A stretch of DNA of 32,922 nucleotides from a virus: positions 1 through 32,922 of IMG/VR virus record IMGVR_UViG_3300025085_000100; one strand, 5' to 3'. Position 1 is the stretch's first letter. Each line of letters starts with the position of its first letter. Below are positions 634 to 14,335 of this stretch, in pieces. A program made the translations under genes and the position numbers. The notes below the pieces were generated by a model. The model searched no databases and was not told the DNA's origin. It worked only from the letters and a program-made list of their open reading frames with translations.

Positions 634-987
634 ATGGCTTACCGCTCCAAATTTGAGGAGCAGGTTGCAAAGACGTTTGATAAACAGGGCCATACATATT
701 TGTATGAGCCTTCAAAAATACCTTACTCATTGTCCTGCTCATATACGCCTGATTTTTGTCTGCCAAATGGCATTTATTTAGAGACAAAAGGCTTTCTCAA
801 GCCGAACGACAGGCGCAAACATATTGCAATTAAAGATCAACATCCAGAGCTTGATATTAGGTTTGTGTTTATGAGAGATAACAAACTCTCAAAAGGTTCC
901 AAGCATTCATATATGTCTTGGGCTGAGAAACATGGATTTAAAGCTTGTGTCTGGCCCAATGTCCCTTCTGACTGGTTTGATGACTGA
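634..987 (+). CDS. Endonuclease I, Holliday junction resolvase (T7 gp3-like)
   Basis: A 117-residue junction-resolving nuclease that would cut branched replication and recombination intermediates and help degrade host DNA. The PD-(D/E)xK core is visible: Glu8/Glu9 near the N-terminus, Pro39-Asp40 in YTPDF, and Glu50-x-Lys52 in LETKGF, matching the spacing of the T7 enzyme. The downstream HPELDIRFVF segment is also characteristic of the family. The length is slightly below that of T7 gp3 (about 149), mostly through a shorter N-terminus. The gene lies two bases after gp2.5, and its stop overlaps the next small ORF by 8 bases. Confidence 0.92.
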   Translation: MAYRSKFEEQVAKTFDKQGHTYLYEPSKIPYSLSCSYTPDFCLPNGIYLETKGFLKPNDRRKHIAIKDQHPELDIRFVFMRDNKLSKGSKHSYMSWAEKHGFKACVWPNVPSDWFDD

Positions 988-3021: not shown

Positions 3022-4768
3022 CTGTGAGACAGATGGTCTCTTACGAAAGTTGACAACCATACACTGCCTTGTGGTGATGGACATTGACACAAAAGAGATC
3101 TTTGAGTTTGACGATTCTGGTCAAAGGGAAACGATAACTACTGGGCTTACTTTGCTTATGGAGGCAAAAGAGCTATGGGGGCATAATCTAACTGGCTTCG
3201 ATATAGAAGCGTGTCGTTCGGTTTACCCCTTCTTTCACCCCCGTTGCAAGGTCTATGACACGTTGATTCTGTCCCGGCTTTTTTATAACGACTTGGTTGA
3301 CCGAGACCTGCGATCTACCCCAGCAAATATGCCTGCTCAGTTATACGGCAGACATAGCCTTGAGGCCTGGGGCTATCGGATGGGTGTCTACAAGTCTGAG
3401 TTTGGTAAGCAACTCGACGGTGACTGGTCAACCTATTCACCACAGATGCTGAAGTATTGCGTTGGTGATGTAAAAGCCAACCTTCCTTTGGTTGAGATGT
3501 TTGCCCCAAAGATCGTCAAGTATCAGCAAGCCATCGATCTTGAACACGCTTGCGCCAAGATTATGACTTGGCAAGAGCAAGAGGGTTTCCCTTTTGATGT
3601 CAAGAAAGCTCAGCAGCTTGAAAGCAAGCTACGGATAGAGCTTGAGGCCTTAGATCAGGAGATGCGATCCAAGATCTGCTTTGTGCCTGGTATTGAGTTC
3701 ACTCCTAAGCGTGACAACAAAACGCTGGGTTATGTGGCTAATGCCCCAATGACAAGGGTCAAGGATTTCAATCCCACCAGTCGGGAACACATCGCATACA
3801 TGTTCACCACGATGCGTGGTTGGACGCCTTCAGAGAAGACAGAAACAGGTAAAGCCAAGATTGATGAAACAGTCTTGAAGAGCATTGGCACTGAAGAGGC
3901 GCTTAAGTTTGCTCGGATCCTTGAACTGCAAAAAGGTTTAGGCCAAGTCAGTGAAGGAAACAACGCCTGGTTAAAGCTTGTAGAACCAGATGGACGCATC
4001 CATCATTCCTGCTTTTTAAATACTGTAACTGGTAGAAATTGTCATGTACGTCCAAACATTGCTCAAGTTAACTCTGGTCATGAGTATCGTGAACTGTTTT
4101 ATCCTGGGCCACATCGTATTCAATTAGGAGCCGATGCTTCGGGGCTGGAGTTAAGGTGCTTATCGCATTTCTTAGCTGGGTTTGGTAATACAGACTTCGG
4201 TAAAGAAGTAGTTGAAGGTGACATCCACCAGCGTATGGCGGATATAGCGGGCGTCTCTAGGAAGGTCCAAAAAAGTATCACCTATGCGTTGTTATATGGA
4301 AGCGGCTCACTCAAATTAGGGTTAGTTGCTGGTGCATCCAAACAAGATGCAGCCAAACGTGGTGCTGAATTAAAAGAGAAACTTCTGACTGGTATCGATG
4401 GTTTTAAAGACCTAGTTGATGCTGTGCAGAAGAAGGCTGAATCAGGTTATTTGCGAGGGCTGGATGGTCGCCCCCTCAAAGTTCGTAAACCTTTTGCGGC
4501 ATTAAATACCCTCTTGCAGGGGGCGGGAGCCTGCATTTGTAAGGCTTGGCTTGTTCGCTCAAATGAGTTACTTAAAGAAGCCAAGATTGATTATTGGCCC
4601 TTAGCTTTCGTACACGACGAGATGCAGCTAAGCGTTGATAAAAACGACGTAACTATGGCGACCGATTTGATAAAGATGGCTATGAAAGATGTCGAGCATA
4701 CAACTAAATTTAGAGTTCCCCTTGACTGCGATGTGCAGACAGGAAGTAACTGGGGAGACACTCACTAA
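3005..4768 (+). CDS. DNA polymerase, family A (T7 gp5-like)
   Basis: A 587-residue replicative polymerase with proofreading. The 3'-5' exonuclease domain carries Exo I in FDCETDG (Asp6, Glu8), Exo II in GHNLTGFD and Exo III in YCVGDVKAN. The polymerase domain has motif A in DASGLELRCL (Asp377), motif B with Arg419, Lys423 and Tyr427 in KSITYALLYGSG, and motif C in FVHDE (Asp538). The length is about 115 below T7 gp5. Part of the loss is in the thumb insertion that in T7 binds thioredoxin: here only about 29 residues (226-254) lie between the helix ending SKIC and the conserved FNPTSREH, against about 70 in T7 as I recall it. The gene overlaps the thioredoxin-like gene upstream by 17 bases. 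Confidence 0.95.
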   Translation: MRLLFDCETDGLLRKLTTIHCLVVMDIDTKEIFEFDDSGQRETITTGLTLLMEAKELWGHNLTGFDIEACRSVYPFFHPRCKVYDTLILSRLFYNDLVDRDLRSTPANMPAQLYGRHSLEAWGYRMGVYKSEFGKQLDGDWSTYSPQMLKYCVGDVKANLPLVEMFAPKIVKYQQAIDLEHACAKIMTWQEQEGFPFDVKKAQQLESKLRIELEALDQEMRSKICFVPGIEFTPKRDNKTLGYVANAPMTRVKDFNPTSREHIAYMFTTMRGWTPSEKTETGKAKIDETVLKSIGTEEALKFARILELQKGLGQVSEGNNAWLKLVEPDGRIHHSCFLNTVTGRNCHVRPNIAQVNSGHEYRELFYPGPHRIQLGADASGLELRCLSHFLAGFGNTDFGKEVVEGDIHQRMADIAGVSRKVQKSITYALLYGSGSLKLGLVAGASKQDAAKRGAELKEKLLTGIDGFKDLVDAVQKKAESGYLRGLDGRPLKVRKPFAALNTLLQGAGACICKAWLVRSNELLKEAKIDYWPLAFVHDEMQLSVDKNDVTMATDLIKMAMKDVEHTTKFRVPLDCDVQTGSNWGDTH

Positions 4769-5117
4769 AGAATGTAGGAAATGTGGTGAAGTTAAACCTA
4801 TTGCTGAGTTCAGTTTGTTTTCAGTTGTTGGTAGTTCGGGAAGGCGCAACACTTGTAAATCTTGTGAATCCGAGATGGCAAGCCTACGAAAGCGACTTAA
4901 AAAAACTCACCCCAAACCCGCCCCTGGACCGTGCCCTGTCTGCGGTAAGCACACGGTCAAATGGGTTTTAGATCACAGTCACACATCCAATACATTTCGA
5001 GGTTACATCTGCAATGACTGCAACCTTGGTATGGGGAAATTTGATGACAACCCAAACATTATCTACAAAGCTTGGAAGTATTTAACTAATGCTACAACAA
5101 CCAACACTTCTCATTGA
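4731..5117 (+). CDS. Endonuclease VII / HNH-type nuclease
   Basis: A 128-residue zinc-binding nuclease. The N-terminal half has paired cysteines (ECRKCG, TCKSC). The C-terminal half has CPVCG, then LDHSH, then RGYICNDCN with LGMGKFDDN, which is the pattern of phage T4 recombination endonuclease VII: a His-metal finger with structural Cys4 zinc and the catalytic DH.H segment. It could resolve junctions or act as a free-standing homing endonuclease; T7 has an HNH gene (5.3) at the same place after gene 5. ATG 4731 is chosen over ATG 4689 because it gives a 38-base rather than an 80-base overlap with the polymerase and keeps all zinc ligands. The end overlaps the exonuclease gene by 29 bases. 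Confidence 0.85.
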   Translation: MCRQEVTGETLTKECRKCGEVKPIAEFSLFSVVGSSGRRNTCKSCESEMASLRKRLKKTHPKPAPGPCPVCGKHTVKWVLDHSHTSNTFRGYICNDCNLGMGKFDDNPNIIYKAWKYLTNATTTNTSH

Positions 5118-5829: not shown

Positions 5830-5992
5830 CTACGTTTTATACCTTTGTGTCATTATTTTAGCTATCTGCATTGTTGATAAAAATATTCCTTCTTATTTAT
5901 ATCTACAGCTAAAGCTTCAGTGGATTAATACAATTATGTTCTGCTGGAAACTTCGCTTTAAATGGTTCTTTTTCCGACAACGATTTCGATGA
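5822..5992 (+). CDS. Small membrane protein
   Basis: A 56-residue protein with one clear N-terminal transmembrane segment (about residues 4-18, YVLYLCVIILAICIV), a second weakly hydrophobic stretch and a strongly basic aromatic tail (RFKWFFFRQRFR). I do not recognise it. ATG 5822 overlaps the exonuclease stop by 8 bases, and its TGA overlaps the next start as ATGA at 5989-5992. The double overlap supports translation. Orientation by the positive-inside rule would put the C-terminus in the cytoplasm. It could modify the host membrane; a real but rapidly evolving early protein is the safest reading. Confidence 0.5.
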   Translation: MNNYVLYLCVIILAICIVDKNIPSYLYLQLKLQWINTIMFCWKLRFKWFFFRQRFR

Positions 5993-6291
5993 ACAAACAA
6001 GATCCGCAACACTACAAAACCAAAGGTATTGAGGTTTGGGATTACATCCAACAAAACAAACTGTGTTACTTCAAAGGCAACATTCTTAAATACTTGATTC
6101 GTGCTGGCTCTAAGCCTGGCGAGTCAGAGCTGGATGATCTCCGTAAAGCAAGTGTTTACTTAGACAAACTTATTTCAATTAAAGAACATGAATCACGTTC
6201 AGCAAGCGATCGAATTCAGGAGCTGTATGACGCAGCCTATTTCAACTATGAGTCAGAAGACCCTAGCCTTGCAAACCCGTTTGATCGCTGA
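5989..6291 (+). CDS. DUF3310 (SaV-like) protein
   Basis: A 100-residue protein with the DUF3310 signature: HY near the N-terminus, GIEVWDYI, then YFKGNILKYLIRAGSKPG and LDDLRKASVYLDKLI. This domain is common in phages beside nucleotide-metabolism genes. T7 gp1.7, reported to have nucleotide kinase activity, is placed in this group as I recall, so a nucleotide-related role is plausible but not shown. The start is taken as ATG 5989 rather than the in-frame ATG 5962 because it forms an ATGA overlap with the preceding gene and precedes the conserved HY. The 3' end overlaps the MazG-like gene by about 104 bases, unusually long for this genome. Confidence 0.82.
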   Translation: MNKQDPQHYKTKGIEVWDYIQQNKLCYFKGNILKYLIRAGSKPGESELDDLRKASVYLDKLISIKEHESRSASDRIQELYDAAYFNYESEDPSLANPFDR

Positions 6292-12870: not shown

Positions 12871-12898
12871 ACGTCTCGGAAAAGGCGTCGGTTACGAA

Positions 12899-12944
12899 AG
12901 GGTGCTCTGGCTGAGTTTGGGGGGTTCGATTCCCCCCTCACCTT
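12899..12944 (+). ncRNA. tRNA-like structure lacking an anticodon arm
   Basis: A compact three-way junction can be drawn. The closing stem is AGGGTG (12899-12904) with CACCTT (12939-12944), with one G-U pair. A mini hairpin CTC-TGGCT-GAG occupies 12905-12915. A T-arm is formed by six G-C pairs (12919-12924 with 12932-12937) around the 7-base loop TTCGATT, the canonical T-loop. The sequence GGTGCTCTGGCTGAG resembles the 5' end of a bacterial tRNA-Ser or tRNA-Leu, so this may be a tRNA whose middle was deleted. It cannot decode. It lies in the capsid mRNA leader and could be a processing site or stability element; this is inferred from structure only. Confidence 0.5.
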
Positions 12945-12947
12945 ATT

Positions 12948-13096: not shown

Positions 13097-14035
13097 ATGG
13101 CAAACATGAATCTTACGCGTCCAGGCGCGTCAAATGGAGGCAGCGATTCTCGCGCCTTGCTACTCAAGCTGTTTACTGGAGAGGTGTATGAATCTTTCCG
13201 TACAGCCCTAATCGCCAAGCCTCTTGTTCAGAGCCGTACTCTGACTAACGGCAAAGAAGCCCAATTCATCCATACCGGGACCATGACGGCGGGTTTTCAT
13301 ACGCCGGGAACCCCACTACTCGGTAATGGAAGTGGTACAGATGGTGCCCCTAAGCAAGCCGAAACCACCATCACTGTAGACCAACTACTTATTTCTCAAG
13401 CGTTCGTTTACGAACTCGATAGTGTTCTTGCTCACTACGATATTCGCGGCCCAATTGCTCGTCAAATCGGACAAAGTTTGGCCGAACATTATGACCGTCG
13501 TATCTTCCGTGTGCTTGATCGTGCAGCAGTAGCCACGGCTCCTGTTACAGGTGAACCCGGTGGATTTACTGTTGGATTGGGTGCAAATAACGAGTACAAT
13601 GCTCAATCTTTAGTCGACGGTTTCTTTGAAGCTGCGGCTGTATTAGATGAACGTTCTGCTCCTAAAGATGGCCGAGTAGCTGTACTTAGCCCCAGGCAAT
13701 ATTATAGCTTAATTTCTAGCGTGGACACTAATATCTTAAATCGGGATATTGGCAACACCCAAGGTAATTTGAACTCTGGCGATGGTCTTTATGAGATCGC
13801 CGGTATCAAGATTCAAAAGTCCAACAACATTCCTTTCCTCGGAAAGTATGGTGTGGCCACTGGTACAGCTATCGAAGATACCGATACTACCAATGAGAAG
13901 AATGACTACGGTGATACCACCGACTTCAGCAACTCTTGCGGATTGATTTTCCATCGTGATGCAGCGGCTGCCGTAGAGGCAATTGGTCCTTCTGTTCAAA
14001 CTTCTGGTGGAGATGTTTCCATCATGTATCAGGGT
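13097..14035 (+). CDS. Major capsid protein, exon 1 (T7 gp10-like; split gene)
   Basis: The first 313 codons of the major head protein, HK97 fold by family. T7-like capsid blocks are present: LLLKLFTGEVYESFRTALI at the N-terminus, YELDSVLAHYDIRGPIARQ, VLSPRQYYSLIS, and near the end RDAAAAVEAIGPSVQ then SGGDVSIMYQG. In relatives the chain continues from MYQG with a conserved GRLAMG-type tail. Here it instead meets AAG TGA, because a group I intron begins at 14036. The missing tail is found as exon 2 at 14258. A spliced product would be 338 residues, close to T7 10A (345). Unspliced mRNA yields a 314-residue protein ending in Lys. The leader of 226 bases is highly structured, and a terminator follows exon 2. 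Confidence 0.93.
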
Positions 14036-14257
14036 AAGTGATTGCCCCTTTAGCGAGTAATCGTTAAATAAACACTGGATGAATTCAGGGAAACCTAAGG
14101 CGAAAGCTATGGCAATCCTGAGCTAAGCCTCTCAAGCGTGAGAGGAAAGTGCATCGACTAGGTGGTGTGACACGCTTGTCACGTAATACACCAATAGCGT
14201 CCGGCACCCAAAGGGGTGAAGATATAGTCAGAGCCACATTAAAGTGTGGATAACTTG
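14036..14257 (+). ncRNA. Group I self-splicing intron in the capsid gene
   Basis: A 222-base intron without an ORF. P1: exon GGGT (14032-14035) plus AA pairs with TTGCCC (14042-14047), giving the required U-G at the 5' splice site and a GUGA loop. P3: ACACTG (14072-14077) with TGGTGT (14163-14168). P4: TCAGG (14085-14089) with CCTGA (14117-14121). P5 ends in a GAAA tetraloop (14102-14105). P6a: CCTCTC with GAGAGG (14128-14145). P7: GACTA (14156-14160) with TAGTC (14225-14229) in the classic AAGATATAGTC. P8 and a CACCC/GGGTG hairpin lie between. P9: CCACAT with GTGTGG (14234-14249). The intron ends in G (14257). P10: GATC of exon 2 with GATT (14040-14043). Joining is in phase 0. Confidence 0.93.
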
Positions 14258-14335
14258 GATCTCGTTGTGGGACGCCTTGCAATGGGCGCAGGCGCAGTCC
14301 GCGTCTCTGTTGCAGGTGCTTTCCGTAACACCTGA
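14258..14335 (+). CDS. Major capsid protein, exon 2
   Basis: Twenty-five codons plus TGA encoding DLVVGRLAMGAGAVRV then SVAGAFRNT. No start codon or Shine-Dalgarno precedes it, but fused to exon 1 it restores the C-terminus expected for T7-like capsids (MYQG-DLVVGRLAMG; T7 has AKYAMGHGGLRPE at this place). In an unspliced reading this stretch would be untranslated despite its clear protein-like character. The intron-exon boundary is fixed to one base by the terminal G, the P10 pairing and the frame. Confidence 0.9.
   Translation, partial: DLVVGRLAMGAGAVRVSVAGAFRNT

What the first reader, a model, noticed from the sequence alone, without database searches (positions are those of the whole stretch)
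14036..14257. Group I intron interrupts the major capsid protein gene
A 222-base sequence with a near-complete group I core (P1, P3-P9, P10, terminal G) splits a T7-like capsid ORF 25 codons from its end. The splice is phase 0 and restores the expected C-terminus. Group I introns are known in phage DNA polymerase, thymidylate synthase, ribonucleotide reductase and cyanophage psbA genes; I do not recall one in the major capsid gene of a T7-like cyanophage. Splicing would then gate production of the most abundant virion protein.
Basis: partly seen in the sequence, partly recalled or inferred. Interest (0 to 1): 0.88.

Follow-up and report, generated by a model that had tools for sequence, protein, structure and literature searches.

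The report
Self-splicing intron splits phage capsid gene
A virus of marine cyanobacteria carries, inside the gene for its main shell protein, a 222-letter stretch whose RNA should cut itself out, and related viruses carry similar stretches at seven places in that same gene, up to four at once, which is unusual because such introns mostly sit in DNA-metabolism genes.

Summary
The finding holds. Window 14036-14257 is a complete, ORF-less group I intron of 222 nt (Rfam RF00028, 98.9 bits, E 1.2e-24). It splits a T7-like major capsid protein (MCP) gene in phase 0. Exons 13097-14035 and 14258-14335 join to a 338-residue MCP. Empty sites with the same junction exist in relatives whose MCP is 98-99% identical. 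Close kin of the intron occupy seven positions of the T7-like cyanophage MCP gene; one contig has four in one MCP. Across 28 introns, 96.7% of cells in a 64-pair model are paired and 40 pairs show changes on both sides (0/500 shuffles). P1 and P10 covary with the exons at each site, supporting the exact splice sites. The intron is about 88% identical between phages whose MCP DNA is 65% identical, and its presence is patchy, implying horizontal spread, although no homing endonuclease was found in intron-bearing contigs. Capsid-gene introns are known (mycobacteriophage LittleE), so this is a new member of a known kind in a new, multi-site setting. Splicing is inferred; 'gating' is untested.

The parts
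13097..14035 (+). Exon 1 of the major capsid protein gene (residues 1-313, ends ...YQG, last base U)
   Evidence: ORF 13097-14041; Pfam Gp10A-like major capsid protein E 2.2e-57; 83% identical to S-CBP2 MCP
14036..14257 (+). Group I intron, 222 nt, no ORF of its own on the sense strand; unspliced frame stops at its second codon (AAG TGA)
   Evidence: Rfam RF00028 98.9 bits; empty sites in L003-L005; stop position
14258..14335 (+). Exon 2 of the capsid gene (residues 314-338, DLVVGRLAMGAGAVRVSVAGAFRNT, and stop TGA 14333-14335)
   Evidence: Spliced translation; aligns with the C-terminus of the Syn5 MCP sequence in PDB entry 4bml
14032..14035 (+). P1, exon side GGGU; pairs with the internal guide 14044-14047 GCCC, with a U-G pair at the splice site
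14040..14043 (+). P10, intron side GAUU; pairs with 3' exon 14258-14261 GAUC
   Evidence: in lineage 2 both sides change (ACAUU with GAUGU)
14051..14066 (+). P2 hairpin (14051-14056 with 14061-14066)
14075..14081 (+). P3 5' strand, pairs with 14198-14204
14085..14121 (+). P4 (14085-14090 with 14116-14121) enclosing P5
14122..14150 (+). P6 (14122-14123 with 14149-14150) and P6a (14128-14133 with 14140-14145)
14156..14160 (+). P7 5' strand GACUA, pairs with 14225-14229 UAGUC (pseudoknotted with P3)
   Evidence: invariant in 28 introns
14161..14192 (+). P7 extension: outer stem 14161-14164 with 14189-14192, inner stem 14167-14171 with 14178-14182 (labelled P7.1 and P7.2 here), typical of IA introns
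   Evidence: strong covariation in both stems
14205..14218 (+). P8 hairpin (14205-14209 with 14214-14218)
14234..14249 (+). P9 hairpin (14234-14238 with 14245-14249)
4689..5117 (+). Endonuclease VII-motif ORF; possible free-standing endonuclease, not shown to act on the intron
   Evidence: Pfam PF02945 E 4.7e-11; homologue in the intron-less phage S-CBP2

Best explanation
A group I (IA-type) intron lies in the capsid gene of an uncultivated T7-like cyanophage related to S-CBP2. After transcription the RNA folds (shown by covariation). P1 pairs the 5' exon end GGGU with the internal guide GCCC (shown by covariation), and guanosine attacks after U14035 (inferred from the family). P10 then lines up the 3' exon GAUC with GAUU, and the exons are joined after G14257 (pairing shown, reaction inferred). 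This yields a 338-residue MCP. Unspliced RNA stops after one intron codon and gives a 314-residue product without the conserved C-terminal segment, so splicing is probably needed for an infectious virion (inferred). The intron belongs to a small subfamily found at seven positions in T7-like cyanophage MCP genes. It carries no endonuclease gene and probably spreads between co-infecting phages as a passenger of recombination at a strongly conserved, highly expressed gene. An endonuclease acting in trans may help (inferred).
For: Rfam 98.9 bits, E 1.2e-24. Empty alleles with the exact junction in 98-99% identical MCPs L003, L004, L005, and 234 loci in all with an unbroken junction. Covariation over 28 introns: 96.7% of cells paired, 40 of 64 pairs with double changes, 0 of 500 shuffles as good, and 33-38% paired when partners are slid. 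P1/P10 fit each site's own exons better than any of the other 5039 assignments of the seven sites. The Gly codon before the intron is GGT in all real occupied F sites, against 103 of 237 empty sites. Removing all four introns restores a 332-residue MCP in L299, 77% identical to an unbroken relative. In 27 of 28 introns the unspliced frame stops within three codons. The intron is 88% identical to that of L107, where exon 1 is 65% identical in DNA, and presence needs 10 changes on the MCP tree.
Against: No RNA or virion protein data exist for these phages, so splicing is not observed. No homing endonuclease (HNH_3, GIY-YIG) was found in 22 intron-bearing contigs, which are incomplete, so the route of spread is unexplained. 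P10 at site E is only 2 bp in my scan, and P2 pairs in only 82% of cells, partly from alignment and partly because some introns lack it.
Confidence: 0.94

Rival explanations
1. A dead intron or insertion: the RNA no longer splices and the phage uses a 314-residue capsid protein.
For: The unspliced frame is open to residue 314 and most of the fold is encoded by exon 1.
Against: All core pairs are kept, with compensatory change in relatives. The window's intron is intact and 95-96% identical to L006 and L015 while the coding sequences have drifted further (L006 86.4% DNA identity; L015 85% protein). The last 25 residues are conserved in the Syn5 capsid and in part in P-SSP7. Precise empty sites and in-frame exon 2 in every occupied allele argue against decay.
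Confidence: 0.03
2. A regulated gate: the intron is kept because splicing links capsid production to translation or energy state late in infection, and/or the unspliced 314-residue form is a useful minor capsid protein, like T7's 10A/10B pair. (The intron reading is the same as in the best explanation; only its role differs.)
For: A stop falls within three codons of the 5' splice site in 27 of 28 introns. Published work proposes intron splicing as a sensor (PMC11878797). The intron varies more slowly than its host gene.
Against: Most relatives, including phages with 98-99% identical MCPs, do without it. Presence is patchy, as expected of a neutral or selfish element. The truncated product would differ greatly from site to site. 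Early stops can also arise simply because ribosomes must not enter the intron.
Confidence: 0.12
3. Collaborative homing: the free-standing Endonuclease VII-like protein (4689-5117) cuts intron-less MCP genes and drives the intron, as F-CphI does for the psbA intron of S-PM2.
For: The window has both endonuclease I and an Endo VII-motif protein, the combination in which PMC6083498 doubts a resolvase role and suspects homing.
Against: The same gene sits at the same place in intron-less S-CBP2, far from the MCP gene, and was found in only 4 of 22 intron-bearing contigs, all of them possible fragments.
Confidence: 0.08
4. An assembly artefact or chimaera.
For: The sequences come from metagenome assemblies.
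Against: The same intron at the same junction is found in independent contigs from different sample sets (L002, L006, L015, and many of lineage 2) with divergent flanks.
Confidence: 0.01

Closest known systems
Intron in the major capsid gene of mycobacteriophage LittleE (PMC3706429)
   Same: A probable group I intron in a major capsid gene; splicing shown there by RT-PCR and N-terminal sequencing
   Different: A siphovirus of an actinobacterium; the intron is about 819 bp with a homing endonuclease ORF; one site in one phage
[quoted passage not shown]
   Same: T7-like phages, one of them a cyanophage; group I intron in a protein gene
   Different: DNA polymerase gene; intron carries an HNH endonuclease in P6a; single site
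psbA intron of cyanophages S-PM2 and S-CBWM1, with F-CphI collaborative homing in S-PM2 (PMC6083498)
   Same: Group I intron in a cyanophage gene; the S-CBWM1 copy gives a 73% blastn match over 69% of the window intron
   Different: Large cyanophages, photosynthesis gene; endonuclease gene next to or in the intron
Group I introns of Twort and Bastillevirinae phages (PMC11878797)
   Same: Several group I introns in one phage genome, sometimes several in one gene
   Different: Gram-positive hosts; authors stress that introns sit in nucleotide and DNA-metabolism genes (a Twort tail tube gene is an exception)

Membership tests
Group I self-splicing introns | Conserved core with P3-P8 and the P3/P7 pseudoknot | tested here: met
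   Rfam RF00028 full-length match; P3, P4, P6, P7, P8 paired in 98-100% of cells over 28 introns
Group I self-splicing introns | 5' exon ends in U paired with G in P1; intron ends in G | tested here: met
   5' exon ends in U and intron in G in all 28; the U-G pair was required by the P1 scan, so partly by construction
Group I self-splicing introns | Internal guide sequence pairs with both exons (P1 and P10) | tested here: met
   Matched pairings beat all other site assignments (1 of 5040); P1 paired in 100% and P10 in 89% of cells
Group I self-splicing introns | Intron-less allele with exactly joined exons | tested here: met
   L003, L004, L005 and others
Group I self-splicing introns | Guanosine-dependent self-splicing | not testable with these tools
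   Needs in vitro splicing or RT-PCR
Group IA subgroup | Stem extension between P7 and P3 (P7.1 with P7.1a or P7.2) | tested here: met
   Both stems present and covarying; IA1 versus IA2 not decided
Mobile (homing) group I introns | Homing endonuclease gene in the intron | tested here: not met
   Intron is 222 nt without a sense ORF; no HNH_3 or GIY-YIG in 22 intron-bearing contigs
T7-like (Gp10A) major capsid protein | Sequence match to the capsid family and to solved capsids | tested here: met
   Pfam PF21703 E 2.2e-57; Syn5 4bml E 3.2e-110

The most novel reading that the evidence does not exclude
A capsid-dedicated family of tiny, endonuclease-free group I introns has repeatedly colonised one gene, the T7-like cyanophage MCP gene, at seven sites. 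Cores are swapped between site-specific 5' guide domains, perhaps moving to new sites by reverse splicing, and splicing feeds back on capsid output during infection.
Probability: 0.2. Interest if true: 0.85.

Novelty: new member of a known kind. Interest (0 to 1): 0.68.

Why it matters
Phage group I introns are found mostly in nucleotide and DNA-metabolism genes, and why is an open question (PMC11878797). Here the most abundant virion protein of a widespread group of marine phages is interrupted at seven sites, with up to four introns in one gene and no endonuclease to explain the spread. It offers a natural series of occupied and empty alleles for testing selfish spread against regulation. 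It also has a practical side: MCP is a marker gene, and gene callers will truncate or fragment it in these phages, as with the 314-residue ORF here.

Tried and rejected
P-SSP2 and P-SSP3 gave two-piece MCP matches, but the P-SSP2 MCP is one annotated 1314-base ORF, so that insert is in frame and not taken as an intron. Endonuclease VII as the driver was weakened by its presence in intron-less S-CBP2. Two regex 'occupied' calls (L031, L218, with GGA/GGG) lack the intron core and were dropped. ARAGORN and Rfam gave no true tRNA upstream of the MCP gene. My first splice of the four-intron gene reported the wrong ORF and was corrected. Paper searches for a T7-like or cyanophage capsid intron found none; subscription papers and most preprints are outside that library.

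Full report
What is there. Window 13097-14041 encodes a 314-residue T7-like capsid protein ending YQGK (Pfam Gp10A-like). Its last two codons, AAG TGA, lie inside a 222-base insertion at 14036-14257 that Rfam recognises as a group I intron over the full model length, 98.9 bits, E 1.2e-24, the only Rfam match in the window. Joining 13097-14035 to 14258-14335 gives a 338-residue protein whose last 25 residues, DLVVGRLAMGAGAVRVSVAGAFRNT, match the C-termini of the solved capsids of Syn5 (4bml) and, in part, P-SSP7 (2xd8). The closest cultured relative, Synechococcus phage S-CBP2 (83% identical MCP), has an unbroken gene.

Empty sites. In IMG/VR the MCP of L003, L004 and L005 is 98-99% identical in protein and reads straight through ...YQG-DLVVG... 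without the insertion. At this site (called F) I counted 234 loci with an unbroken junction. Among 240 MCP loci fetched by protein similarity alone, 9 showed an intron core. The queries came from intron-bearing contigs and broken genes can be missed, so 4% is only a rough figure.

The same intron elsewhere. A 22-base pattern from the core (TGAAYTCAGGGAAACCTAMGGC) found 32 stretches (31 contigs) in IMG/VR, and every one lies in a T7-like MCP gene. In 84,980 bacterial and archaeal genomes the same pattern occurs twice, both in what look by eye like tRNA genes of gammaproteobacterial bins. Relatives at lower identity occur in many phages, including the psbA intron of cyanophage S-CBWM1 and an intron region of S-SRM01. 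In the MCP gene the introns sit at seven positions: after residues 28, 66, 112, 175, 201, 308 and 313 of the window protein, in phases 0, 1 and 2. One contig, IMGVR_UViG_3300020414_000298, has four of them (A, B, D, E) in one gene. Removing all four restores a 332-residue MCP 77% identical to the unbroken L178. L123 has two.

Evidence that the RNA is functional and the splice sites are right. On an alignment of 28 introns with 8 exon bases on each side, a 64-pair group I structure including the P3/P7 pseudoknot, P1 and P10 is paired in 96.7% of cells; 40 pairs have changes on both sides; no shuffle of 500 equals it; sliding partners by one to three columns drops pairing to 33-38%. The pairs that reach across the splice sites covary too: at site F the window has exon GAUC with intron GAUU, while lineage 2 has GAUGU with ACAUU; at site G the exon CAUUAUG is matched by CAUAAUG. 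Over the seven sites the true assignment of introns to exons scores higher than every other permutation (1 of 5040). The base before the intron is U in every case, and at site F the glycine codon is GGT in all real occupied alleles but only 103 of 237 empty ones. The search for P1 required a U-G pair, so that feature is partly by construction.

How it probably works. By the established mechanism of the family, guanosine attacks after U14035, the freed exon attacks after G14257, and the exons join. If translation runs ahead of splicing, the ribosome stops at the second codon of the intron. In 27 of 28 introns the host frame stops within three codons, against 18 of 56 for the other two frames, and at several phase-1 sites the stop is formed at the junction itself. 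This would keep ribosomes out of the ribozyme. None of the splicing steps was observed here.

How it spreads. The window intron is 88% identical to that of L107, in a phage whose MCP exon 1 is 65% identical in DNA, and 95-96% identical to those of L006 and L015, which have more divergent exons. On a tree of 150 MCP genes, 14 occupied alleles need 10 changes of state. Both point to horizontal movement. On a tree of intron cores, introns at the same site mostly group together (7 changes for 7 sites, minimum 6), with exceptions: the E intron of the four-intron gene has an E-type 5' domain but a core nested among F introns, and the B intron of the same gene groups with the G intron of L123. Cores therefore seem to be exchangeable between site-specific guide domains. 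No HNH_3 or GIY-YIG gene was found in 22 intron-bearing contigs. An Endonuclease VII-like protein, a motif that serves as a homing enzyme in S-PM2, is present in the window, but also in intron-less S-CBP2 at the same place. I therefore favour spread by recombination during co-infection, with a trans-acting endonuclease possible.

Known and new. Group I introns in phage capsid genes are not unheard of: mycobacteriophage LittleE has one with RT-PCR and protein evidence, and that paper cites a lactococcal case. T7-like cyanophages are known to carry them in DNA polymerase. A 2025 survey asks why phage introns sit almost only in nucleotide and DNA-metabolism genes. I found no report of introns in the MCP gene of T7-like cyanophages, nor of a capsid gene with four. 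The window intron is therefore a new member of a known kind; the multi-site occupation of the capsid gene is the surprising part. Regulation of capsid production by splicing is possible but has no support beyond the early stops.

Noticed in passing
window 12876-12946, and upstream of the MCP start in relatives (L003, L005, L006, L009, L025, L030, L083): A tRNA-like minihelix (a T-arm with loop TTCGATT stacked on an acceptor-like stem, no D or anticodon arm) lies between scaffold and capsid genes. Its stems covary between relatives (AGGGTG/CATCCT, ACGGCTA/TAGCCGT, GCATAG/CTATGC). 36 of 137 upstream regions score 10 or more pairs, against 1 of 137 shuffled. It may be an RNA-processing signal for the capsid message.
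   Followed up: partly
L299 (contig IMGVR_UViG_3300020414_000298, 9952-11644): Four group I introns in one capsid gene (sites A, B, D, E); splicing all four restores a full MCP.
   Followed up: yes
L124 intron (site E) and L113 intron (site B): Chimaeric introns: the 5' guide domain fits the site, while the core belongs to another site's group.
   Followed up: partly
L298 2097-2338 (contig of L108): A second group I intron, in what looks like the ribonucleotide reductase small-subunit gene, in a phage that also has the capsid intron; a glutamine-II riboswitch lies at 5975-6027.
   Followed up: partly
L301 and L302 (gammaproteobacterial genome bins): Group I introns with the same core motif appear to sit in the anticodon loop of a tRNA gene (CAU-like flanks), read by eye; ARAGORN calls no tRNA there.
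   Followed up: partly
window 634-987 and 4689-5117: The phage has both endonuclease I and an Endonuclease VII-motif protein, a combination for which the second may not be a resolvase.
   Followed up: partly
L082 777-2090 (Cyanophage P-SSP2): The annotated MCP ORF is 437 codons, with an in-frame insert relative to other cyanophage MCPs.
   Followed up: no
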